From positions 558,001-622,000 of the forward strand of contig NZ_JACVAJ010000001.1 of assembly GCF_014851815.1 (NCBI RefSeq): a DNA stretch of 64,000 nt. The letters are read 5' to 3'. Shown here in pieces: positions 2,157 through 55,290 of the stretch (the stretch's first letter is position 1; each line of letters begins with the position of its first letter). This DNA comes from Pseudoxanthomonas sp. PXM01 (GTDB lineage: Bacteria > Pseudomonadota > Gammaproteobacteria > Xanthomonadales > Xanthomonadaceae). Made by a program: the position numbers and the translations under genes. Below the pieces are notes generated by a model that was not told the origin of the DNA, did not search any database, and saw only the letters and a program-made list of their open reading frames with translations.

Positions 2157-5100
<2,944 letters not shown>

Positions 5101-5124
5101 CCTCCGGGATACGAGGGAACGGCG

Positions 5125-5523
5125 ATGCACCTGCTGATCAACATCGACGTTCCCGACCTGCCCGCCGCGGAAGCGCTGTACACGCAAGCCTTCGACCTGA
5201 TCGCCGCGCGCCGCTTCGGCGACGGGGGCGTGGAGCTGCTCGGCGCACAGGCGCCGATCTACCTGCTGCAGAACCCCTCGGGTTCGATGGCCGCCGCCGA
5301 TAGGCCCCGCGACTACACCCGCCACTGGACGCCCGTGCACCTGGACGTGGTGGTGGACTCCCTTGAACCTGCCCTCGACCGCGCCCTGCAGGCCGGCCTG
5401 GTGCAGGAAACCGACATCCGTGAAGCGAACTGGGGCCGCATCGTGCGGCTGGCCGATCCCTGGGGCCATGGCTGGTGCCTGCTGCAGTTCGTCAACCGCG
5501 GCTACGACGAGATCGCCACATGA
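5125..5523 (+). CDS. VOC (glyoxalase/bleomycin-resistance fold) protein
   Basis: A 132-residue protein of the vicinal oxygen chelate fold. It shows the paired beta-alpha-beta-beta-beta layout: [17 protein letters not shown] at the start and [18 protein letters not shown] in the second half, ending [12 protein letters not shown]. Members bind a metal and can be glyoxalases, dioxygenases or antibiotic-binding proteins. The sequence does not settle which. GGA lies 7 bases before ATG 5125. The stop overlaps the start of the metallo-beta-lactamase gene (ATGA), so the two are probably translated together. Confidence 0.88.
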
Positions 5524-6425
5524 TGCTGCGCTCCACCCTGTTCGGCGGCCTGCTCGCCCTCGCGCTGCCTGCCACGGCATTCACCTCCGAGGTTCCTGCT
5601 GCCACGGCCTGCAAAGACGACGCCGGCTGGAATGATCCTGCCACGCCGCTGCACGTGTACGGCAACACCTGGTATGTCGGCACCTGCGGCATCAGCGCCT
5701 TGCTGGTGACCTCGGATGAAGGCCACATCCTGGTCGATGCCGCCACGCCGCAGGCCGGCCCGCAGATTCTGGCCAACATCCGTGCGCTGGGCTTCAAGCC
5801 CGAGGACGTGCGCGCCATCGTGTTCTCGCACGAGCACTTCGACCACGCTGGCAGTCTGGCGGAGTTGCAGCGCGCCACCGGTGCACCCGTGTACGCACGC
5901 GCGCCGGCCGTGGGCACGCTGAAGCGCGGTATGCCGGACCGGACGGACCCGCAGCTGGAGGTGGCCGAACCCATGGCTCCGGTGGCGGATGTCGTCACGC
6001 TCGCCGACGACGGCGTGGTGCGCGTCGGACCGCTGGTCCTGCAAGCGGTCGCATCGCCCGGCCATACGCCCGGCGGTACCAGCTGGACCTGGCGCGCCTG
6101 CGACGGCAACGACTGTCGCCAGATGGTCTACGCCGACAGCCTGACCGCCATCTCCGACGACGTGTACCGCTACACGGACGAAGCGGCGCATCCCGGCTAT
6201 GTGGCCGCGTTCCGCGCGACGCTGGCACGAGTGGCCGCGCTCGACTGCGATGTCCTGATCACGCCGCATCCGTCCGCCAGCCGCCTGTGGACGCGGATCG
6301 GCCCCGCGGCCAATGCGCCGTTGGCGGATCGTGACGCCTGCCGTGCCTACGCGCAGAAAGCCTCCGAGCGGCTGGACAAGCGGCTGGCCGACGAAGCCGA
6401 GAAGGCCGCATCCGCACGCCCTTGA
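5520..6425 (+). CDS. Subclass B3 metallo-beta-lactamase
   Basis: This is a periplasmic zinc hydrolase with a signal peptide of about 20 residues and the B3 ligand set. The HxHxDH motif is H104-E-H106-F-D108-H109, the third-strand His is H182 in GHTPG, and the last is H250 in HPSAS. The GTSWTW and YADSLTA segments also match B3 enzymes such as L1. Known B3 enzymes hydrolyse penicillins, cephalosporins and carbapenems, although some relatives are lactonases. Length (301) fits. It starts in an ATGA overlap with the VOC gene. Two adjacent ATG codons (5520, 5523) are possible starts. No LysR or AmpR-type regulator is nearby. Confidence 0.9.
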
Positions 6426-6510
6426 TCGGCATCAATGTCCCCGGCGTCGCCATCGGCGACGCTACCTTCTCCTTTCCCTGCACGGCGCATCGCCGCGCGA
6501 TACCGACCCG

Positions 6511-7761
6511 ATGACCAAGAAGACCTCTCCCCGCGCCGCATCGCTTCCGTTCGAGATCGACGCCACCCGTCAGTACCCGCTCGGCATGCCGGCCGACCGC
6601 TTCCTGCGCGATTACTGGCACAAGCGTCCGCTGCTGATCCGCAACGCCTTCCCCGATTTCGAGACGCCGGTACAGCCGGAAGACCTCGCCGGCCTGGCCT
6701 GCGAAGAGGGTGTGCTGGCGCGCATGATCAGCCTGGACAAGGCGACGGGCGTCTGGGACGTGCGCACCGGCCCCTTCCAGGAAGAAGACTTCCCCGGCCT
6801 GCCCGACCACGACTGGACCCTGCTGGTACAGGATGTGGACAAGTGGGACGCCGATGTCCGCCAGCTGCTCGAACAGTTCCGCTTCCTGCCGCGCTGGCGC
6901 GTGGACGACATCATGATCAGCTTCGCCGCCACCGGCGGTTCGGTCGGCGCGCATGTGGACCACTACGACGTGTTCCTGCTGCAGGCGCAGGGCGAGCGGC
7001 GCTGGATGATCGATGCCAGCGTGGCGATGGGGAAGCCGGCGCCCGACCTCGCCTTCCAGGATGACGTGGCGATCAAGCTGCTGCGCCAGTTCGATCCCAC
7101 GCACGAATGGGTGCTGTCGCCGGGCGACATGCTGTACCTGCCGCCGCTGGTCCCGCACCACGGCGTGGCGGAGAACGCCTGCCTGACGTTCTCGGTGGGC
7201 ATGCGCGCGCCGTCGTCGGCCGAGCTGATCGGCGACTACCTGGACACGCTGATTGCCGATGCGGACGACGCCGTCCGTTACCACGACGAAGACCTGACGG
7301 CACCGCAGGACCCCAACGAGATCGACGCCCGCGCGATGGAGCGCGTGGTCGATGCCTTGAATGCGCTGCGCATGAACGATCCCGACCTGGTCGGCGACTG
7401 GTTCGGCCGCTTCATCACGACCTACCGTGCCTCCGGCGATGTCATGCCGGCGCCGGATGCACCGTCACGCATCGAGATGGAGTGGGACCTGCAGCAGGGC
7501 GCCCAGCTGCTGCGCCACCCGTTCTCGCGTTTCGCCTGGCGCCGCCGCCGCAAGGGCGCGACCCTGTTCTGCAACGGCGTCGACTATGTCTTGCCGGTCA
7601 AGGAAGCCCAGCAGTTGGCGGCACTGGAAGGCCTGGACGGCAACACCTATGCGGCGCTCAGCGAGGCCGGCCGCGATGCGGTGATGGCGCTGGCAGCGCA
7701 GGGCCACTATCAGCTGGCCGTGCCCGACGACGATCCGGACAACGGGGACGAGGACGCATGA
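6511..7761 (+). CDS. roxA: Ribosomal protein uL16 3-hydroxylase (RoxA/YcfD, JmjC-like cupin)
   Basis: RoxA (YcfD) is a 2-oxoglutarate/Fe(II) oxygenase that hydroxylates an arginine of ribosomal protein uL16. The iron motif HxD is seen as GAHVDHYD (H148, D150), with the third ligand in the PHHG segment near residue 216. DRFLRDYWHKRPLLIR near the start is typical of the family. The winged-helix C-terminal half follows, including a HPFSRFAW segment. It is 416 residues, slightly longer than the Escherichia coli protein. ATG 6511 is chosen because homology starts a few residues later. It overlaps the next gene by ATGA. Confidence 0.92.
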   Translation: MTKKTSPRAASLPFEIDATRQYPLGMPADRFLRDYWHKRPLLIRNAFPDFETPVQPEDLAGLACEEGVLARMISLDKATGVWDVRTGPFQEEDFPGLPDHDWTLLVQDVDKWDADVRQLLEQFRFLPRWRVDDIMISFAATGGSVGAHVDHYDVFLLQAQGERRWMIDASVAMGKPAPDLAFQDDVAIKLLRQFDPTHEWVLSPGDMLYLPPLVPHHGVAENACLTFSVGMRAPSSAELIGDYLDTLIADADDAVRYHDEDLTAPQDPNEIDARAMERVVDALNALRMNDPDLVGDWFGRFITTYRASGDVMPAPDAPSRIEMEWDLQQGAQLLRHPFSRFAWRRRRKGATLFCNGVDYVLPVKEAQQLAALEGLDGNTYAALSEAGRDAVMALAAQGHYQLAVPDDDPDNGDEDA

Positions 7762-8669
7762 GCGCCACGCGCGACTACCACGTCGACACCGTCGACTACG
7801 CCGCGGACCCAGGCGTGGTCCACCAGGTGCGGGACGTGGTGTTCGTGCAGGAACAACAGGTGCCGCGCGACCTGGAACGGGACGCGCTTGATCCGCTCAG
7901 CCATCACGTGGCGGCCCGTGATGCCTCGGGTACCCCGATCGGGACGGCGCGACTGACGCCCGAGCACCGGATCGGCCGCATGGCCGTGCTGTCGGCCTGG
8001 CGCGGTCGCGGCGTGGGCGACGCCCTGCTGGTCGCCCTGCTGGATGAAGCCCGTCGACGCCAATGGCCCGACGTATCGCTGCATGCCCAGGTCGCGGCCG
8101 AGGCGTTCTATACCCGGCATGGCTTCCTGCCGGAGGGAGAGCGCTTCATCGAGGCCGGCATCCAACACCAGGCCATGCGGCGCGTGCTGGCCGGACCGGC
8201 AGCGATCGCCCGTCGCCACGAGGCCGTGGCCATCACCACGGCGGTCATCGCCCAGGCCCGACGGGCGCTGGTGGTGTACAGCCGTGCGCTGGATCCCGGC
8301 CTGTGGGATGCGCCCGCCGTCGTCGAGGCCTTGCGCCGCTTCGCCACCCGCCAGACCGGCGCCCAGGTGCAGTTGTTGCTGCAGGATGCCGCCACCCCGC
8401 AGCGGGCATTGGCGCCCCTGATCGGCCTGGGCCAGCGACTGCCCAGTGTGTTCGTATTCCGCGAGGTGCAGGACCCGGTTGACCTGCCCTACACCGCCGC
8501 CTTCGTCGCCAACGACGATCACGGTTACTACTTCAGGCCGCTCGGCCATCGCTTCGATGGCGAAGCGGGACTCGCGCACGCAGGCCGCGCGCGCCAGCTG
8601 CGCGAGGAGTTCTCGCAGATGTGGGAACGCGCGCGCCCGGTCAGCGAATACCGCGCGCTGGGCATCTGA
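7758..8669 (+). CDS. GNAT acetyltransferase fused to a C-terminal DUF7931-like domain
   Basis: Residues 1-140 form a GNAT domain with the acetyl-CoA loop RGRGVGDALL and a YTRHGFLPEGERF segment near its end, like ElaA/PhnO-type acetyltransferases. Residues 150-303 are a second domain, with LVVYSRALDPGLWD and a long C-terminal helix. It resembles the domain often annotated DUF7931 in Xanthomonadaceae and faintly recalls phospholipase D-like folds, but I see no HKD motif. The gene overlaps roxA by four bases, so coupling is likely. The substrate is unknown. Confidence 0.85.
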   Translation: MSATRDYHVDTVDYAADPGVVHQVRDVVFVQEQQVPRDLERDALDPLSHHVAARDASGTPIGTARLTPEHRIGRMAVLSAWRGRGVGDALLVALLDEARRRQWPDVSLHAQVAAEAFYTRHGFLPEGERFIEAGIQHQAMRRVLAGPAAIARRHEAVAITTAVIAQARRALVVYSRALDPGLWDAPAVVEALRRFATRQTGAQVQLLLQDAATPQRALAPLIGLGQRLPSVFVFREVQDPVDLPYTAAFVANDDHGYYFRPLGHRFDGEAGLAHAGRARQLREEFSQMWERARPVSEYRALGI

Positions 8670-45511: not shown

Positions 45512-46174
45512 TTAGCGCTGCGGCCGCACCACCGCACCGGATGCCGCGCGCCATAGCCACCACCCGCCGAGCCACATGGCGATGACGATCAGCGCGATCA
45601 GCAGTTTCTGCACCCAGCCCGGACCTGCGGGCGGCCAGAGCGCATGCAGCCACAACAGGGCGTAGCAGATCGATGACCACGCGGCGGCCAGCGGAAAGTA
45701 CCGACGCCACGCCTCGTCCAGGCGGAACCGCCACGCCTGCAGCAACATGCCGGTGGTGACGCAGAGGAACGCGGTGATCGCGCAGGTGTGATGGAACCAG
45801 TGATGGAAGTCCGGCGCCGACTGCGGCAGCCAGGAATCGCCGAGCGCCACGCCCGCCAGCCCCGCGGCGCCCATGCAGAACAGCAGCAGCGGCGCCGCGC
45901 TGCGCGCCCTCGACGACAATTGCGCGCGCAAGCCCATCGCGAGCACCACGATGGTCGCAGCGAGCACGCAGTACGTGGTTCGCAGCAGCAGCCCCCAAGG
46001 GCCGAGCAGATACTGGCTCAGGGTAGCCCGCTGCCAGTCCAGGTCGCCCCGCACCAGTTGCAATGACCCCGCCACCATCAGGAACCCGACCGCACCGGTC
46101 ATCGCGGCCAACCCGGCCAACCGGATCGGCGTTGGAGGGGACAGCCGCTGGGCGGCAGGTCGGGGCTCGGGCAT
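45512..46174 (-). CDS. DUF998-like integral membrane protein
   Basis: A 220-residue protein with about six membrane helices after a short Pro-rich cytoplasmic start. DLDWQRATLSQYLLGPWG and FHHTCAITAFLC are the features of the DUF998 group. Function unknown. It precedes ridA on the same strand with a 29-base gap and diverges from the MASE2 cyclase gene. The start ATG 46174 is chosen because the upstream frame is Arg/Pro-rich and unlike coding sequence. Confidence 0.85.
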   Translation of the reverse strand: MPEPRPAAQRLSPPTPIRLAGLAAMTGAVGFLMVAGSLQLVRGDLDWQRATLSQYLLGPWGLLLRTTYCVLAATIVVLAMGLRAQLSSRARSAAPLLLFCMGAAGLAGVALGDSWLPQSAPDFHHWFHHTCAITAFLCVTTGMLLQAWRFRLDEAWRRYFPLAAAWSSICYALLWLHALWPPAGPGWVQKLLIALIVIAMWLGGWWLWRAASGAVVRPQR

Positions 46175-46350
46175 CGGCGGATCACGCAGGGAAGACACCG
46201 GATTATCGTCCAGCCGCTCAAGAATCCGTGCGGGCGGCCGCCCTGTTAGGCATGACTCCGCAGCGTGCCCGCCATCACGCTTTGACCTACACTCCGCCAT
46301 CCCCCGGCGCCCCGGGGATGGCCGCCACGAGCAAGGGGACTCCAGCGCCA

Positions 46351-47433
46351 ATGCCGTTCACCGCACCGCCCGGGACCGATCCGGAGCGCCATACCCAACG
46401 CCTGCCGCGCCGGATCTACCGGCTGCGGGTGCTCGGCATGGGGTTGAGCGCGCTGCCGATCGGCATGGTCCTGCTGGAGAACCAGGCGGGCGCGGGCCAC
46501 TGGCTGTTCCTGCTGTTCACCACGGTGCTGTGGCCGCAGCTCGCGCTGTGGCTGGCGCTGCGCCACCGGGTGCCGTTCCGCGGCGAGATCCGCAATCTGC
46601 TGGTCGACTCGATCCTCGCCGGCATGTGGGTGCCGCTGATGGGCTTCAACCTGCTGCCCAGCGTCCTGCTGGTGACCCTGGCCACGGTGGACAAGATCAG
46701 CACGGGCATCGACCGGCTCTGGTACTGGTCGCTGCCGCTGATGGCCGCCGGTGCGGTGGCCGCAGGCACGGCGACCGGGTTCGAAATGCAGGCGGTCACC
46801 AGCATGCCGGTGATGGTTGCGTGCCTGCCGATGCTGCTGATCCACACGATCGCCGTCAGCCAGGCCAGCTACCACCTGGTGCGCAAGGTGAAGCGGCAGA
46901 ACCGGCAACTGGACGAACTGAGCCGGCGCGACACGCTGACCGCGCTGGACAGCCGCCGTTACTGGCAGGAACAGGCGGCACTGCTGCTCGACCAGTGCGC
47001 GGCGACCGGCGAGCCGGCCACGCTGCTGATGATCGACATCGACCACTTCAAGACGATCAACGATCGTTACGGCCATGCCGCGGGCGACGACGTGCTGCGG
47101 GCCACGGCGGAGGTGATCCGCCACAGCATCCGTGGCCACGACGCGGCCGGCCGGCTGGGCGGCGACGAATTCGCGGTGCTGCTGCGCGGCACCGACGTGG
47201 AGGCGGCCGGCATCGTGGCGCAGCGCATCCGCGAAGGCGTCCAGGCGTTGCAGGTGGACAGCGCGCCGGGGCTTCGCCCCACCGTCAGCCTGGGCCTGGC
47301 GAAGACGACGGGAGCCGCGGGCTTGCGGGCCTGGCTGGAAGCGGCCGACCGGGCGCTGTACCAGGCCAAGAGCCGGGGCCGCAACCAGCTGGCGATCGAC
47401 GACGGCCTGCGGGCGATCGTCGACACGCCCTGA
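46351..47433 (+). CDS. MASE2-GGDEF diguanylate cyclase
   Basis: This membrane diguanylate cyclase makes cyclic di-GMP. Residues about 15-175 form a MASE2 sensor (RRIYRLRVLGMGLSALPIGM, then VDSILAGMWVPLMGFNLLPS) with several membrane helices, as in DgcC/AdrA. The GGDEF domain follows with the active motif GGDEF at about residue 270 and an intact I-site, RGHD, five residues before it. Starts at 46351 (360 residues) or 46318 (371) are possible; AAGGGGA sits upstream of the first. It converges on another cyclase gene 9 bases away. Confidence 0.93.
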   Translation: MPFTAPPGTDPERHTQRLPRRIYRLRVLGMGLSALPIGMVLLENQAGAGHWLFLLFTTVLWPQLALWLALRHRVPFRGEIRNLLVDSILAGMWVPLMGFNLLPSVLLVTLATVDKISTGIDRLWYWSLPLMAAGAVAAGTATGFEMQAVTSMPVMVACLPMLLIHTIAVSQASYHLVRKVKRQNRQLDELSRRDTLTALDSRRYWQEQAALLLDQCAATGEPATLLMIDIDHFKTINDRYGHAAGDDVLRATAEVIRHSIRGHDAAGRLGGDEFAVLLRGTDVEAAGIVAQRIREGVQALQVDSAPGLRPTVSLGLAKTTGAAGLRAWLEAADRALYQAKSRGRNQLAIDDGLRAIVDTP

Positions 47434-47442
47434 TCCGGGCCC

Positions 47443-49248
47443 TCAGGCGCCGAGGTGCTCGGCGCGATCGCGGTGCGGCATCTCCAGCACGTTGCTGGCG
47501 GCGCGGACGTTCTCCTGCTCCGCGTCGTACACGCAGACACGGTTGCGGCCGGCGTGCTTGGCGCGATACAGCTGCTTGTCGGCCTGCGAGAGCAGCTTGG
47601 CCAGGCTGTAGCCCGACAGCTGGCTTGAGGTCACGCCGAAGCTGCCGGTGATGGCGAACACGTGCCCGGTCTCGCGGGTCTCGATCTGGGCCAGGCGCAC
47701 GCGACAGTCTTCGGCCACGCGGGCGGCGGCCCGCAGGTCGCAGCCGTACATCAGGATGGCGAACTCTTCACCGCCGAGGCGGCCGAGCACGTCGATGCGG
47801 CGGCAGAAGCCCTTGCTGGCCTCGGCCACTTCCTTCAGCGCCCAGTCGCCGGTGCCATGGCCGAAGCGGTCGTTGATGTTCTTGAAGTGGTCCAGGTCGA
47901 ACATGATCAGCGAGGCCTGCTCGCCGTTGCGCGCGCACTCGGCCAGCGCGCGCTCGGCGCGCAGGGTGAAGTGGTGGCGGTTGCAGATGCCGGTCAGGGC
48001 ATCGGTCTCGGCCATCTTCTTCAGGGACAGCTGCACGCGCTTGATCTTGAATGCCCAATAGCCGATCGAGGCGATCAGCAGCACCAGCAGGATCACGATC
48101 AGCCGCGTGTTCTGCGCGGCCTGCTGGTCGACCTTGCGCTGCAGCTGGAGCACCTGGTTCTTCTGGTCGAGCACGCTGATCTGCTGGTTCTTCTGCAGGA
48201 TCTGCTGGCGCACCAGCTGGTAAGCCAGTTCGCGCGTCTTGACCTCGTTGAGGTACGCCTTGTCGGCATTGGCGTACTTCTTGTATTGCTCAAGCGCCAT
48301 CGCCGGATCGCCGCGCATGTTCGCGATCTCGTACAGCACTCGATGAGCGACGACCAACGGCAACGATCCGTTGATCGCCGTTCCTTGCGCGACGGCCGTA
48401 TTCGCGTGCTTTTCGGCAGCGCCTATTTCGCCCAGCTTCATGCGGTAATCTGCCAGCATGGAGTGGTACTCGCCGATCAAGCGCGGATACTTCGTGGCCT
48501 CGACGTCGGACAGGTGTCTCTCCAGCACGTCGATGGCATTCTTGAGTTTGCCGTCCGCGACCCATTTGCGCGCGAGATAGGTTCGGGAGAATCCCGCCAG
48601 CAGGGATTCTTCCTGTTGCTCGCACGCCTGGATCGCGGAGAAAATCATCTCCTCCTGCACCGGCTGATGCAGGCCAAGCAGCGATTCGACGACCAGATTG
48701 CCGGCAAGGCATTTGCTACGCCCTTTCGGATCGTCTTCCAGCACTTGCTGGGCATAGTCACGGCCCAGGCTGTACTCGCCGACCTGGTTGTAGAGAATGC
48801 CGGCCGCCATGAGGCCATGGTGGCGACTGTCGCGGTCGGTGACCTGGGATGCCAGCGGCAGGGCTTCGTTGAGTGCGCTCAGTCCCTGCTCGAAACGCCG
48901 GGTGACGGCATAGGTATTCGCCAGCATGGCGCCCGCACGAAAGCGGAGATTGACGTCTTCGCTGCCCGTGCCCAGCTCCTGCAACTCCTGGATCGCCAGT
49001 TCGGACTGGCCCTTCATGAGGAAGCCGTGCGCCTTCATCAGGCGCAGCTTGTTGCGCTGTTCCTTGGTCGCACTTTCCTGCTGAAGCTCGAGTTGCGAGA
49101 GGAGTTTGTAGAAGGCGGTCGGGTCGCCCGTCCTGACTTCGTCTGCCTGCTTCAACAGCGCGTCGAATGAGGGCGCAGCGAATGCGGGTGCGCTTAGCAG
49201 CCCGAGCAAGCAACCCAGTAATCCGTACCGGAACCTACGTGCGTCCAT
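47443..49248 (-). CDS. TPR-GGDEF diguanylate cyclase
   Basis: A 601-residue protein with a 23-residue signal peptide, a periplasmic helical-repeat domain (about 25-370, several TPR-like units such as QSELAIQELQELG and MALEQYKKY), a coiled coil (QQILQKNQQISVLDQ), one membrane helix (about 400-420) and a GGDEF domain. The motif is GGEEF at about residue 492 and the I-site is RRID five residues before it, so the enzyme is probably active and feedback-inhibited. AAGGAG precedes ATG 49248. It is directly downstream of the putative borosin precursor, separated by a hairpin. Confidence 0.93.
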   Translation of the reverse strand: MDARRFRYGLLGCLLGLLSAPAFAAPSFDALLKQADEVRTGDPTAFYKLLSQLELQQESATKEQRNKLRLMKAHGFLMKGQSELAIQELQELGTGSEDVNLRFRAGAMLANTYAVTRRFEQGLSALNEALPLASQVTDRDSRHHGLMAAGILYNQVGEYSLGRDYAQQVLEDDPKGRSKCLAGNLVVESLLGLHQPVQEEMIFSAIQACEQQEESLLAGFSRTYLARKWVADGKLKNAIDVLERHLSDVEATKYPRLIGEYHSMLADYRMKLGEIGAAEKHANTAVAQGTAINGSLPLVVAHRVLYEIANMRGDPAMALEQYKKYANADKAYLNEVKTRELAYQLVRQQILQKNQQISVLDQKNQVLQLQRKVDQQAAQNTRLIVILLVLLIASIGYWAFKIKRVQLSLKKMAETDALTGICNRHHFTLRAERALAECARNGEQASLIMFDLDHFKNINDRFGHGTGDWALKEVAEASKGFCRRIDVLGRLGGEEFAILMYGCDLRAAARVAEDCRVRLAQIETRETGHVFAITGSFGVTSSQLSGYSLAKLLSQADKQLYRAKHAGRNRVCVYDAEQENVRAASNVLEMPHRDRAEHLGA

Positions 49249-49298: not shown

Positions 49299-49571
49299 TC
49301 ATTCTTCCTCAGGTTCCTGACTGTCCGGCAATTCCTCGGCACCGTCGGGAACATCGCGTTCTTCCGAGCCATCCGGCGTAGCGATCATGCAGAACATGGT
49401 TGCGCGACCATCCAGCAGCCTGTTCAGTGCGGTCGCGTCCTGACCGCGCAATGCAAGGCGTTCGGCAGGCGCGAGCGCATCCCCTTCTGCAGTATCCAGC
49501 AACTCCAGCGGTACCCGGCCAAACGCGGCCGAGGCCCCCATCTTCTCAAGCATTCCAATTACGACCGACAC
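49299..49571 (-). CDS. Putative split-borosin precursor peptide
   Basis: This 90-residue protein has no signal peptide. I chose GTG 49571 because GGGGGAGA lies about 6-13 bases upstream; ATG 49553 would give 84 residues without a good ribosome binding site. Residues 7-55 are probably helical (MLEKMGASAAFGRVPLELL, LALRGQDATALNRLLDG), like the binding domain of the SonA precursor. Residues 57-66 (ATMFCMIATP) are the candidate methylated core, followed by an acidic tail ending QEPEEE. It lies downstream of the methyltransferase. The assignment is inferred from context and layout, not from a database. Confidence 0.75.
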   Translation of the reverse strand: MSVVIGMLEKMGASAAFGRVPLELLDTAEGDALAPAERLALRGQDATALNRLLDGRATMFCMIATPDGSEERDVPDGAEELPDSQEPEEE

Positions 49572-49767
49572 AGGTAGTCTCCCCCAAAAGGCTGTTGATT
49601 TTCCGCGGCCAAGCCGATAAACCGATGACCGGTTCCCCGCCGGCACAGGCCGCCTGCCAGGACGACGGCCAACTCACAGCCCCGCCCGGATGCCGAAGAT
49701 AGCCTCTTTTGGCGACCACCTCTACCCAAGTCCTGGCCCCGAGGGGCAAATCTGGCCTGCGGGTGGT

Positions 49768-50550
49768 CTATCCGGCTTCAAGCACCTTCAGCCGGTCGAG
49801 CATGGCCTGATTGGGGCGCATCGGGCCCGTGGGCGGAATCACCAAGGTCGTCGCGGGAGTGAGATCGGCGGACAACAGCGCCTCCAACGACATGCGATCG
49901 GCCCTCGGCGACGATATTGGCAGCGTCGCGGCTTCGTAAGCGATGACTTCGTGGGAGGGTCCGTAGGACGGGGTCAGCAGCTCAAGCAGCAATGCGCGGT
50001 GGGGCGCCCCGGTAGACGTTCTGGACACGCTGCGGTCGCCAACGACACCAATCTGCCACAGCACAAGATACGCCGTGGGATCGAACACACGCTGGTAAAG
50101 AAGGAACTGGCTTGCCTCGTAGTGCTGACAACCCACGTTACCGGGATCTATCCCCAGGTCCGCATACAGACAATCTTCGGCCGACACTGCAGCCTCCATC
50201 ACCGCATCGAACCCTTCCGCGCGCGCCTGCGCGATGGCCCGGTGCGGAACCTGAGCGAAGACGCCCGGGTGGCCGTAGAACGCACCGCAGACACGGTGCC
50301 CGGCGCGCACCTCAGCCATCATCGCGTCGATCATCTGGCGGTACGTCTCCGTCCTCGCCTTACCCTCGGCGTAGAAAGGCTGCAGGCTACGCACATCGGG
50401 ATGCATTTCCTGCACCCACAGTTCGACCACAGGGTCTGAAACGGACAGGAAGACGACATCCGCCTGTTCGATGTAGTTGCGCGACCGTGGCGCCAAGTGC
50501 GCCCCCAATGTCATCCCCAGGCCCACGCAGGCCAAGCTTCCCGATTTCAT
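49768..50550 (-). CDS. Borosin-type alpha-N-methyltransferase (split, SonM/OphMA-like)
   Basis: This 260-residue protein has the tetrapyrrole-methylase fold: ACVGLGMTLGAHLAPRSRNY at the start and FYGHPGVFAQVPHRAI near residue 91 for S-adenosylmethionine binding. VSAEDCLYADLGIDPGNVGC is close to the OphMA sequence as I recall it. Y60, R66, Y70 and Y92 lie where OphMA has catalytic Tyr66, Arg72, Tyr76 and Tyr98, with a constant offset of six; OphMA Tyr63 is Gln57 here. There is no fused clasp or core, so it must act in trans. AGGAG precedes ATG 50550, which overlaps the GNAT stop. Confidence 0.88.
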   Translation of the reverse strand: MKSGSLACVGLGMTLGAHLAPRSRNYIEQADVVFLSVSDPVVELWVQEMHPDVRSLQPFYAEGKARTETYRQMIDAMMAEVRAGHRVCGAFYGHPGVFAQVPHRAIAQARAEGFDAVMEAAVSAEDCLYADLGIDPGNVGCQHYEASQFLLYQRVFDPTAYLVLWQIGVVGDRSVSRTSTGAPHRALLLELLTPSYGPSHEVIAYEAATLPISSPRADRMSLEALLSADLTPATTLVIPPTGPMRPNQAMLDRLKVLEAG

Positions 50551-51125
50551 TCATTCTCCTCGGCGACGCACGGGGACGGACGCGACGACATCGCCCGCCA
50601 CCGCACCCATTCTTCGCGTGTCAGCCACCAGCGCTCCAGGCCATCGTCCGGATGAGCATCGGCGATCTTGTTGAATCCAATCTTGTACATCAAGCCGGCC
50701 GCGAACGTGTTCGTGGAGCGGTAACGAATCATCATGTGCGCGACAGTGGGTTCAGAGAACGCTACCTGCATGCCAAGCGGGAAGGCATGCCCTGAAATGC
50801 CGCGGCCCTGCCACTCGGGCAGGATCATGCCGCCGATCTCGACAACGTCCGCCTTCCTGCCCAATCCCAGCAGACCGGCGACCGCGCCATCCGGAGCGGC
50901 CGTGATGACCCAGCAACGATGACGCAATGCGGCCTCGAGGTTCGCCCTGCATGTCCTGTCGAACGCGACGCGCGCGGCCTCGCCGTCAAGGGGTGCACCT
51001 ACCTGCGCCATCATCACGGGATCGGTATAGACCGCCACGTACAGCTCGCGATCCCGCGCATCGAGCAGCCTCAGGCTGACACGTTCATTCTCCAGTCCGA
51101 ATGAACATTCGCGCGTATCAGGCAC
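50547..51125 (-). CDS. GNAT acetyltransferase (RimJ/RimL type)
   Basis: A 192-residue GNAT protein. RVSLRLLDARDRELYVAVYTDP is the typical RimL-like start, and IGGMILPEWQGRGISGHAF holds the acetyl-CoA loop Q-x-x-G-x-G-like pattern (QGRGIS). STNTFAAGLMYKIGFNKIA follows. The start is GTG 51125, which overlaps the end of trxC by eight bases; the stop overlaps the methyltransferase start (ATGA). In this place it could acetylate the peptide or simply be an operon companion. Confidence 0.88.
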   Translation of the reverse strand: MPDTRECSFGLENERVSLRLLDARDRELYVAVYTDPVMMAQVGAPLDGEAARVAFDRTCRANLEAALRHRCWVITAAPDGAVAGLLGLGRKADVVEIGGMILPEWQGRGISGHAFPLGMQVAFSEPTVAHMMIRYRSTNTFAAGLMYKIGFNKIADAHPDDGLERWWLTREEWVRWRAMSSRPSPCVAEENE

Positions 51126-52745: not shown

Positions 52746-55220
52746 TCAGGGCGCCGCCGCCGACCTCGCCGGCGCATCCGTCGCGCCCAAGTGCTTCTGC
52801 AGGAAGCCGGCCACGGCCGTCCAGGATTTCTCCTCGTTCTCCTGCGAGTCGAAGCCGTGACCTTCCTTCTCGAACACCAAGCCGACGGCGGGATGTCCGC
52901 CCAGGCGCAGCATGCGCGCGAGCCGGCGACTGTGTTCGTAGTCCACCCGCTCGTCTTCCAGGCCATGGATCAACATCACCGGCGTGCGGATGCGCGCGTA
53001 CTGGTAAAGCGGCGAGGTCTCCTGCATCCGCGCCAGGTCGGTGTGCGGATTGCCGATGGTCTTCTCCATGTGCTCGCGCGTCTTGGCGCGCCTGGCCGAA
53101 TCGCTGGCGGTGAAGAACAGCACGCGATCGCTGACGCCTGAAATCGACACCGCGCACCGGAAGCGGTCGGGCCATCGCACCGCGGCGACCAGCGAGGAGT
53201 AACCACCGTAGCTGGCGCCCACCATGCACATGCGCGCCGGATCGAGGGGATAGCGCGCCAGGGCGTGCTGGAGCGCGGCCTCGATGTCGTCCTCGATCAC
53301 CGTGCCGTGGCCGCGGTAACCGCCCTCGCGGAACGCTTTTCCGTACCCCTCCGAGCCGCGGAAATTGACCTGCAGTACTGCGTAGCCCAATGACGCGATG
53401 AACTGCACGTCGCGGTCGAAATGCAGGCTGTCGGCCACGCCGATCGGCCCGCCGTGGGGCATCACCACCAGGGGACGCTTGCCCGGCCCCGCCGGCAGCG
53501 TCAGGAAGGCATCGATCTTCGTGCCGTCGGCGTGCTTGACCTGCAGGACTTCCGCCGGGGCGAAGCGCAGCTCGGCGAGCGACGGCGCGAAGTCGTCGAT
53601 CAGCGACACCTGGCCACCGGCCGCATCCAGGTGGAACAGCTGCGGCGGATGGTCCGGGCCATCGACACTGAGCACCACATGGCGGCCGTCGCGGTTTCGG
53701 TCGAGTACCTGCACCAGCCTGCCCGGGAAGGCCTTCTGCAGCAGGCCTTCCATGTGCACGTCATCCGACTGGAAGTAGTGGCTGACGATCCTGCCGCTTT
53801 CGTAGTACTGCACGCCGATGGGCACACGCCGGGCGTCGAACAGCACCCTGCGCACATCCTGGCCCGGCCGCGTGAACAGCGTCCGCGTCACTGCCTTCTT
53901 CGCCAGGTCGTACTCGACCAGGTCGCGCTGGCCGCGATCCTTTTCGGTGAAGCCGTAGACCACGGCGGCATCGTGCGACAGCGCGACGGGATCGAAGTCC
54001 ATGTCCTCGTTCAGCGCAAGGACCTGCCGGTACTCGCCTTCTTCCTTGCGCAGCAACACGTAACCATCGTCCTTGCGGGCCATCACCAACCGCAGCCGGC
54101 CGAACCCGTCCGTGAACCAGCCCACGTCATCCGTCAAACCCTGGTTGACGCGATCGCGATAGATGAACCGGAACGCATCCACCGACTGCTGGCTCCCGAT
54201 CGGAAGCCGGTGCACCATCGGCTCGCCCTGGTTGGAGTAGCTGGCGAACAGGATGTGGGCCGGGTCGGCGGGCAATGGATCCACGATCACGCCATCGCGC
54301 GGCAGCTTGATCTGCGTGTAGCGACGGTTGCCGGCATCGTCCCGGTCGACGCGCACCACCGTGACCATCTGCAGTCCTCTCGGCTTGTCGATGGTCAGCA
54401 GCAGCAGATCGTCGCTGGCCCATTCCATCCGGTCGAACGCCAGTGCGCTTTTTGCGAGCCTCGACACCTTGCCCGCCTTCAGATCGACGAGATCCACGCC
54501 CCAGTCGTCCTTGCCTTCGTGCACATGCAGCGCCAGCAGCGTGCCGGTGGGGTTGATGCTGGCTTCCAGGATGCGGTCCCGCTTGAACAGCGTGGCCACC
54601 GGCAGCGGCAATGCGGATGGCGCCGGCGGTTCGCCGAGGTCGGCAGTGGTGTCCTGCGTCCCGGTCGCCTGCACCGCCTTGTAGAAGGCCGGGAACGGAT
54701 CCGGATAGCGTCCGGTGAACTCGAACGGGTAAGCCGCGTAGATCGCGGCATGCTCCTCCCGCAGCCAGTCGATCGCGGCCAACGCGCGATTGGCCATGGC
54801 AAACTGCGCGCGCCAGACCGAGGTGGGCCGGAACAGCAGGTCACCCGGGTAGGTGATCCGCCCGGCCTCGACCTTGAAACGGAAATCCTCGTCGTCGGCC
54901 AGCTTGTAGCTGTAGCCGTGGATCATCTGCAGTTCGCGCCAGCCGTAGGCACCGGCGGGCACCGCGTACAGGCGGAAGCTGCGACCGGCCTTCAGCTGGC
55001 GCATCGCGCCCGAGCCGAAGATCTTGCCGTCGCGGTTCATGCGTACGGAGTACACCGGCACCGGCGTATCCACCGCCATCAGCACCAGCCCCTCGCCCGC
55101 CTTCAACGCCGGCGCACTGCCGGGCTCGACCTCGCGCATGCTGGCCTGCGCGGCGAACGCGGACAGGCCCAGCAGGAAAACCAGCATCGCGACACCGCGA
55201 CGCCATACCGGACGCTCCAT
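52746..55220 (-). CDS. S9-family prolyl oligopeptidase
   Basis: An 824-residue exported peptidase (signal peptide ending AQA). The N-terminal beta-propeller spans about 30-560, and the alpha/beta-hydrolase domain follows. The nucleophile Ser is in VGASYGGYSSLVAA (about residue 660), the acid in HGLEDERV and the His in KEGHGF. VMPHGGP is the oxyanion region. It cleaves short peptides, often after proline. ATG 55220 is preferred to the longer frame to 55289. Confidence 0.92.
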   Translation of the reverse strand: MERPVWRRGVAMLVFLLGLSAFAAQASMREVEPGSAPALKAGEGLVLMAVDTPVPVYSVRMNRDGKIFGSGAMRQLKAGRSFRLYAVPAGAYGWRELQMIHGYSYKLADDEDFRFKVEAGRITYPGDLLFRPTSVWRAQFAMANRALAAIDWLREEHAAIYAAYPFEFTGRYPDPFPAFYKAVQATGTQDTTADLGEPPAPSALPLPVATLFKRDRILEASINPTGTLLALHVHEGKDDWGVDLVDLKAGKVSRLAKSALAFDRMEWASDDLLLLTIDKPRGLQMVTVVRVDRDDAGNRRYTQIKLPRDGVIVDPLPADPAHILFASYSNQGEPMVHRLPIGSQQSVDAFRFIYRDRVNQGLTDDVGWFTDGFGRLRLVMARKDDGYVLLRKEEGEYRQVLALNEDMDFDPVALSHDAAVVYGFTEKDRGQRDLVEYDLAKKAVTRTLFTRPGQDVRRVLFDARRVPIGVQYYESGRIVSHYFQSDDVHMEGLLQKAFPGRLVQVLDRNRDGRHVVLSVDGPDHPPQLFHLDAAGGQVSLIDDFAPSLAELRFAPAEVLQVKHADGTKIDAFLTLPAGPGKRPLVVMPHGGPIGVADSLHFDRDVQFIASLGYAVLQVNFRGSEGYGKAFREGGYRGHGTVIEDDIEAALQHALARYPLDPARMCMVGASYGGYSSLVAAVRWPDRFRCAVSISGVSDRVLFFTASDSARRAKTREHMEKTIGNPHTDLARMQETSPLYQYARIRTPVMLIHGLEDERVDYEHSRRLARMLRLGGHPAVGLVFEKEGHGFDSQENEEKSWTAVAGFLQKHLGATDAPARSAAAP

Positions 55221-55290
55221 CACCCCTCCCCTGTCTGTCCTCACGCGATCCCCATCGCGCCGCCATGTTAGCGCCTCGACGCGCGCCACA

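What the first reader, a model, noticed from the sequence alone, without database searches (positions are those of the whole stretch)
49299..50550. Split borosin RiPP locus: orphan methyltransferase plus separate precursor
The 260-residue protein at 49768-50550 matches borosin alpha-N-methyltransferases: SAM-binding FYGHPGVF, the VSAEDCLYADLGIDP segment, and Tyr/Arg residues at OphMA positions with a constant offset of six. It lacks the fused clasp and core of OphMA. The next gene downstream encodes a 90-residue peptide with a helical leader, a hydrophobic ATMFCMIATP segment and an acidic tail, the layout of the Shewanella SonM/SonA split system. Backbone methylation of a peptide in trans would be a new product for this lineage.
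Basis: partly seen in the sequence, partly recalled or inferred. Interest (0 to 1): 0.95.

Follow-up and report, generated by a model that had tools for sequence, protein, structure and literature searches.

The report
Split borosin beside its own sensor
This bacterium carries genes for a small peptide and for an enzyme of the family that methylates peptide backbones, and in its relatives the two travel with one kind of membrane sensor gene, so the finished peptide is likely a signal that this sensor would read.

Summary
The protein at 49768-50550 (-) is a stand-alone borosin-family methyltransferase: the 25 solved structures it matches at E<=0.001 are borosin enzymes, SonM first, and the catalytic Tyr/Arg/Tyr/Tyr set is invariant in 107 of 107 split-type loci. 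The 90-aa peptide (49299-49571) has a SonA-type leader: a profile of its family finds SonA chains as its top seven hits, in register. So this is a split (type IV-like) borosin pair; methylation was not testable. Of 395 family genomes, 102 have split enzyme and sensor, 2 only the sensor, 5 only the enzyme. A second clade fuses sensor and methyltransferase in one protein (31 of 31 loci). In another order, 18 of 20 loci that I chose have a TPR protein beside the enzyme, 11 with GGDEF and 6 with a histidine kinase; one is the close SonM/SonA orthologue. Best reading: the methylated core is the ligand of its own TPR sensor. Linkage is shown; the signalling direction is inferred. GGDEF as a borosin domain is already in print (a figure legend).

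The parts
49768..50550 (-). borosin-family alpha-N-methyltransferase, stand-alone, 260 aa; catalytic Y60, R66, Y70, Y92
   Evidence: PF00590; SonM 249 bits, OphMA about 176 bits; residues invariant in 107 of 107 split and 31 of 31 fused loci
49299..49571 (-). precursor peptide, 90 aa, GTG start
   Evidence: ORF and upstream GGGGGAG; homologues; 100 of 109 split-type TPR-GGDEF ORFs have such a gene directly upstream
49413..49571 (-). leader, residues 1-53: predicted borosin binding domain
49368..49397 (-). predicted core, residues 59-68 MFCMIATPDG
   Evidence: conserved hydrophobic block in 89 aligned precursors (C in 71, P in 61); a like block is repeated about four times in the G022 precursor. 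Extent inferred; methylation sites unknown
49302..49367 (-). acidic tail, residues 69-90 (11 acidic, 1 basic)
   Evidence: low confidence in the model from residue 73
47443..49248 (-). sensor: signal-like segment, TPR superhelix with conserved Cys180/Cys209, TM helix about 384-402, GGDEF domain with GGEEF and RxxD I-site
   Evidence: model pLDDT 87
50547..51125 (-). GNAT acetyltransferase; its stop overlaps the MT start
   Evidence: PF13302; GNAT beside MT in 87 of 107 split loci (80 upstream, 7 downstream), 0 of 31 fused. Role unknown

Best explanation
The locus encodes a split borosin pair (a stand-alone borosin-family methyltransferase and a separate precursor with a SonA-like leader) directly upstream of a TPR sensor with a GGDEF domain, and the methylated core is likely the ligand that this sensor would read. 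Shown by sequence: enzyme family, intact catalytic residues, SonA-type leader, conserved gene order, close co-occurrence with the sensor, fusion of sensor and methyltransferase in a sister clade, and different output domains behind TPR repeats in another order. Inferred: the leader docks on the enzyme, the enzyme methylates backbone amides within MFCMIATP, a peptidase frees the core, the core reaches the periplasm, binds the TPR domain and changes c-di-GMP synthesis. In some relatives the peptidase is predicted to be the pepsin-like enzyme encoded upstream; in this genus it is unknown.
For: Enzyme and leader. Co-occurrence: 102 both, 2 sensor only, 5 split enzyme only, 286 neither, of 395 genomes. 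Within the window's genus the two sets are identical (22 both, 14 neither, 0 discordant, of 36; tables). Adjacency: 114 of 128 sensor copies found lie within 6 kb of an enzyme; 100 of 107 split loci have the TPR sensor beside the enzyme, and of the 7 without, 2 are cut by a contig end within 0.5 kb of it. Precursor directly upstream of 100 of 109 split-type sensor ORFs. Three loci carry two precursor-sensor pairs with one enzyme (L097, L111, L158). Three sensor copies on contigs other than the enzyme's have a precursor upstream (L217, L219, L221). Fusion TPR-GGDEF-MT in 31 of 31 loci of the second clade, precursor found in 30. Output swap: 18 of 20 chosen loci of another order have a TPR protein beside the enzyme: 11 GGDEF, 6 histidine kinase, 1 TPR only. 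The close SonM/SonA orthologue (482 and 74 bits) is followed by a TPR-GGDEF gene (L287). A pepsin-like peptidase gene lies upstream on the same strand in 14 of the 15 family genomes with a PF00026 hit, as expected if the core is cut free. Core distances follow the sensor weakly (partial r 0.16 TPR, 0.20 GGDEF) and not the enzyme (-0.01); the leader follows the enzyme (0.37) but also the TPR part (0.24).
Against: No experiment; no docking of peptide to TPR. Gene linkage cannot tell whether the sensor reads the peptide or controls its making. The distance correlations are weak, not corrected for phylogeny and not exclusive to the core (leader-TPR 0.24, tail-TPR 0.26), and recombination along the gene order could produce them. 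9 of 109 split-type sensor ORFs have no precursor found directly upstream, among them second tandem sensors in L088, L101, L114 and L131. Loci with two or three precursors and one sensor exist (L073, L083, L089, L113). Of 14 sensor copies away from an enzyme (L213-L226), 9 have no precursor found upstream, 4 have one (one of these, L226, is a contig break of a normal locus) and 1 starts at a contig end; two of the nine are in genomes without the enzyme (G164, G193). Five split loci lack the sensor (G022, G043, G134, G271, G281). Six of the eight kinase-type sensors lack the Cys pair, so most kinase cases may be a separate TPR family. In the class-wide sample 5 of 8 loci other than the window show no TPR sensor with these profiles, and 2 of the 20 chosen loci show none. 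No exporter was looked for beyond the neighbouring genes. No homologue of the pepsin-like peptidase was found in 38 genomes of this genus.
Confidence: 0.55

Rival explanations
1. Split borosin pair as above, but the sensor acts upstream: the TPR-GGDEF protein senses some other cue and its c-di-GMP, or the protein itself, likely controls when the peptide is made or methylated; the peptide is an ordinary secreted product.
For: Same linkage data. In the fused clade the methyltransferase is the C-terminal domain of the sensor, as an output domain would be, and the GGDEF I-site is missing in 31 of 31 while GG[DE]EF stays.
Against: Precursor and sensor sit together on contigs other than the enzyme's in three cases and in tandem pairs in three loci. 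Regulation would not need the core to vary with the sensor (weak).
Confidence: 0.27
2. The methylated precursor is not cut and acts inside the cell as a protein partner that tunes the adjacent cyclase.
For: No peptidase gene of the pepsin type in this genus; TPR-GGDEF protein RcbB of Vibrio vulnificus is controlled by a partner protein (PMC12282931, abstract).
Against: The TPR part is predicted periplasmic (signal-like start, TM helix at about 384-402) while the precursor starts with a SonA-like leader rather than a signal segment; pepsin-like peptidase genes sit in the cluster in 17 of 107 split loci.
Confidence: 0.1
3. The enzyme is a tetrapyrrole-type methylase of cobalamin or sirohaem metabolism and the small gene is unrelated.
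For: PF00590 is the shared superfamily.
Against: NCBIfam cut-offs missed by hundreds of bits; the 25 PDB matches are borosin enzymes; SonA-type leader next door.
Confidence: 0.02

Closest known systems
SonM/SonA split (type IV) borosin of Shewanella oneidensis (PMC8429565; PDB 7LTC and others)
   Same: Stand-alone MT of about 260 aa with the same catalytic residues; short separate precursor with a five-helix leader; adjacent genes. A close orthologue (L287) also has a TPR-GGDEF gene next.
   Different: Enzyme aligns at 249 bits, so clearly diverged; core MFCMIATPDG with Cys and an acidic tail instead of SonA's short end; 3 residues fewer between the catalytic Tyr and Arg. The paper's main text has no occurrence of GGDEF or diguanylate.
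OphMA and other fused borosins
   Different: Here enzyme and precursor are separate genes.
GGDEF-bearing borosin architecture (Figure 1 legend of PMC11395268)
   Same: The legend defines GGDEF as a domain label, so a borosin with GGDEF is in print; it may be the fused clade seen here.
   Different: Figure not held; TPR input, co-occurrence and kinase outputs were not in the passages seen.
RcbB TPR-GGDEF of Vibrio vulnificus (PMC12282931, abstract)
   Same: TPR domain in front of a GGDEF domain, controlled by a neighbouring gene's product.
   Different: Its partner is another TPR protein, not a methylated peptide. Homology not tested.
Shewasin pepsin homologues of Shewanella (PMC4814920, passages)
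   Same: Same broad peptidase family (pepsin-like, PF00026) as the peptidase upstream of MT in 17 split loci; native shewasin D is mainly cytoplasmic.
   Different: Not found in the window's genus. That shewasin A cuts a borosin precursor is recalled (Lee et al. 2024, not held).

Membership tests
Split (type IV) borosin | Discrete alpha-N-methyltransferase homologous to OphMA/SonM without clasp or core | tested here: met
   260-aa ORF
Split (type IV) borosin | Catalytic Tyr/Arg/Tyr/Tyr | tested here: met
   Y60, R66, Y70, Y92 in 107 of 107 split and 31 of 31 fused loci
Split (type IV) borosin | Separate adjacent precursor with a borosin binding domain leader | tested here: met
   single-sequence PDB search alone gave nothing relevant and Foldseek E-values were not significant
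Split (type IV) borosin | Backbone N-methylation of the core | not testable with these tools
   needs co-expression and LC-MS/MS
Cobalamin/sirohaem methylase | Score above a curated NCBIfam cut-off | tested here: not met
   30.9, 13.1, 12.8 bits against 525, 302, 391
Active diguanylate cyclase | GG[DE]EF motif and fold | tested here: met
   GGEEF at 492-496 and RRID I-site; GGDEF fold matches, E down to 1.5e-12; activity not tested
Peptide signal with cognate receptor | Stable one-to-one gene pairing of peptide and receptor | tested here: inconclusive
   100 of 109 paired, exceptions listed in the Against line
Peptide signal with cognate receptor | Binding of peptide to receptor and change of output | not testable with these tools
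   none

The most novel reading that the evidence does not exclude
Split borosins of Gammaproteobacteria, SonM/SonA included, are signalling peptides: a ribosomal peptide made stable and membrane-permeable by backbone methylation and read by its own periplasmic TPR receptor, which is wired to c-di-GMP synthesis in some lineages, to a histidine kinase in others, and fused to the methyltransferase itself in one.
Probability: 0.4. Interest if true: 0.9.

Novelty: new variant of a known kind. Interest (0 to 1): 0.7.

Why it matters
The 2021 paper on split borosins states that none of these pathways is yet tied to a final natural product (PMC8429565, passage). A sensor gene that co-occurs closely with the enzyme, is fused to it in one clade, and has a kinase counterpart elsewhere gives the class a direct functional test: does the peptide change c-di-GMP through its own sensor. 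If it does, backbone N-methylation would be a way bacteria make peptide signals.

Tried and rejected
Single-sequence PDB search with the precursor found nothing relevant; a profile was needed. Foldseek with the precursor model gave no significant E-value; the SonA and OphA rows rest on the second look. PF00026 in the own genome was empty with a silent control, so the family search, a search of 11 other genomes (1 of 11) and a genus search with a found homologue (0 of 38) followed. The S9 peptidase at 52746-55289 was considered as the maturation peptidase and dropped: a homologue in 3 of 138 loci, the window included, with at most 3 kb upstream in view. A disulfide between core and sensor was considered and dropped as a requirement: 13 of 100 precursors lack Cys in their last 60 residues, while the sensor Cys pair is kept in 107 of 109 split-type and 29 of 31 fused sensors, the rest being gaps. 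My first reading that the fused clade has no GGDEF motif came from a wrong pattern and was withdrawn after reading the alignment. Clustering of flanking ORFs was blurred by antisense frames. The promoter and terminator scan found no promoter-like site. The structure search with the sensor model listed GGDEF chains in the rows shown, so the TPR part is untested by fold. Papers: borosin with GGDEF returned one paper, seen in passages and a legend; borosin with signal and histidine kinase returned one review, listing only; SO1478, SO1479 or SO1480 returned only the SonM paper. Three key papers (Imani 2022, Cho 2022, Lee 2024; DOIs from memory) are not held, so types V to X are known to me only through review passages and memory.

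Full report
What is in the window. On the minus strand, in order of reading: a GNAT acetyltransferase (50547-51125), the methyltransferase (49768-50550, overlapping the GNAT stop), a 90-aa peptide gene (49299-49571, GTG start with GGGGGAG upstream), and a 601-aa protein (47443-49248) with a signal-like start, TPR repeats, one TM helix and a GGDEF domain. The genome belongs to the genus that holds Pseudoxanthomonas: contigs of same-genus genomes G264, G302, G324, G158 and G384 have the lengths of named records of PXM03, PXM02, P. japonensis, P. wuyuanensis and a Pseudoxanthomonas MAG.

The enzyme. Pfam places it in PF00590, and the three NCBIfam matches are far below cut-off. The 25 PDB sequences at E<=0.001 are borosin enzymes, SonM at 249 bits and OphMA at about 176. 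The four catalytic residues are invariant in 107 of 107 split and 31 of 31 fused loci. SonM residue numbers are from passages of PMC8429565.

The family survey. 133 of 395 family genomes hold a match to the enzyme, in 140 places: the window, two duplicates that I did not fetch (G160:C8, G020:C10), and 137 fetched. Two architectures appear. A (107 loci with the window): enzyme, precursor, TPR-GGDEF, often with GNAT (80 upstream, 7 downstream). B (31 loci): precursor, then one protein TPR-GGDEF-MT. In A a TPR sensor hit is present in 100 of 107, TPR and GGDEF in one frame in 98. The sensor's TPR part, searched alone over the same 395 genomes, is in 104; 102 of these have a split enzyme, and 114 of 128 copies lie within 6 kb of an enzyme. 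The Fisher p of 1e-85 is not corrected for phylogeny; by genus, the 20 genera with the sensor all have the split enzyme and 3 more have only the enzyme (tables).

Pairing. 100 of 109 split-type sensor ORFs have a precursor directly upstream; 11 of these 100 precursors score under 40 bits, of which four were looked at by eye. L097, L111 and L158 carry two precursor-sensor pairs for one enzyme. Of the 14 sensor copies away from an enzyme (L213-L226), 4 have a precursor upstream, one of them (L226) a contig break of a normal locus; 9 have none found, and one starts at a contig end. So the pairing is strong near the enzyme and mixed away from it.

Other lineages. In a class-wide sample 9 of 369 genomes match, the window included; L241 and L242 show TPR-GGDEF, L242 and L243 a TPR-histidine kinase, L244-L248 none with these profiles. 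Named loci from Arsukibacterium (L013), Colwellia (L014) and an Alteromonadaceae MAG (L015) have enzyme, a small acidic gene and TPR-GGDEF, the small genes of L013 and L015 read by eye. In the order of G739, 63 of 257 genomes match. I chose 20 places to spread over families: TPR protein adjacent in 18, GGDEF in 11, kinase in 6, TPR only in 1, none in L290 and L291 (L294's kinase rests alone, at a contig end). L287 is the close SonM/SonA orthologue (482 and 74 bits) and its next gene is TPR-GGDEF. The Cys pair of the TPR domain is present in 14 of 14 GGDEF-type and 2 of 8 kinase-type sensors aligned, the window not counted.

Maturation. PF00026 occurs in 15 of 395 family genomes, and in 14 the hit lies 616-1695 nt upstream of the enzyme on the same strand. 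A profile finds the peptidase in 17 split loci; 16 have both D[TS]G motifs in one frame, and in L094 they fall in two frames. L092's copy matches PF00026 at 74 bits and beta-secretases in the PDB. It is also upstream in 4 of the 20 loci of the other order. A homologue search found none in 38 genomes of the window's genus.

Mechanism. The chain leader docking, backbone methylation, release, TPR binding, cyclase change is inferred. The parts shown are presence, conservation, fusion and output exchange. Main rival: the sensor governs peptide making. The distance test used 89 pairs (the 11 with scores under 40 were dropped). Core follows TPR (0.16) and GGDEF (0.20) but not the enzyme (-0.01); leader follows the enzyme (0.37) and also TPR (0.24); tail follows TPR (0.26). 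It agrees only mildly with core-sensor matching, and gene order could cause it.

Novelty. The pair is a new member of the split borosins; the dedicated sensor makes the described unit a variant of that kind. GGDEF as a borosin domain is in print (legend in PMC11395268). I found no paper on the TPR sensor or the kinase link, in these searches only: in an open-licence library that lacks the main borosin mining papers.

Noticed in passing
L290 (G801:C14), ORF 5958-7451 in the oriented locus: A precursor with ten tandem repeats of the type DAAIIKGYA after a SonA-like leader, beside a borosin methyltransferase: a likely multi-core borosin.
   Followed up: partly
L229 (G022), 7851-8333: Precursor upstream of the methyltransferase with about four copies of a core like YFCWVATPEE, and no TPR sensor found in 19 kb.
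   Followed up: partly
L049-L065 and L166-L179: The fused TPR-GGDEF-MT proteins keep GG[DE]EF in 31 of 31 but lack the RxxD inhibition site in 31 of 31 (87 of 108 split-type cyclases have it).
   Followed up: yes
L297 (G857): Gene order precursor, TPR-GGDEF, methyltransferase with separate but overlapping frames: a possible intermediate of the fused type.
   Followed up: no
L069, L087, L092, L093, L094, L102, L105, L109, L113, L116, L118, L119, L122, L123, L127, L128, L149: Bacterial pepsin-like peptidase genes upstream of the methyltransferase; 14 of the 15 family genomes with a PF00026 hit have it there.
   Followed up: yes
window 46063-47433 (+): A second GGDEF protein lies convergent to the sensor gene; a like gene is there in 15 of 22 same-genus split loci, the window included.
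   Followed up: no
L102 (G328) 4077-5902 in the oriented locus: The cyclase gene is split over two frames in this assembly; left as found.
   Followed up: no
G049, G097, G332, G349, G366: Five genomes carry both the split and the fused type.
   Followed up: no
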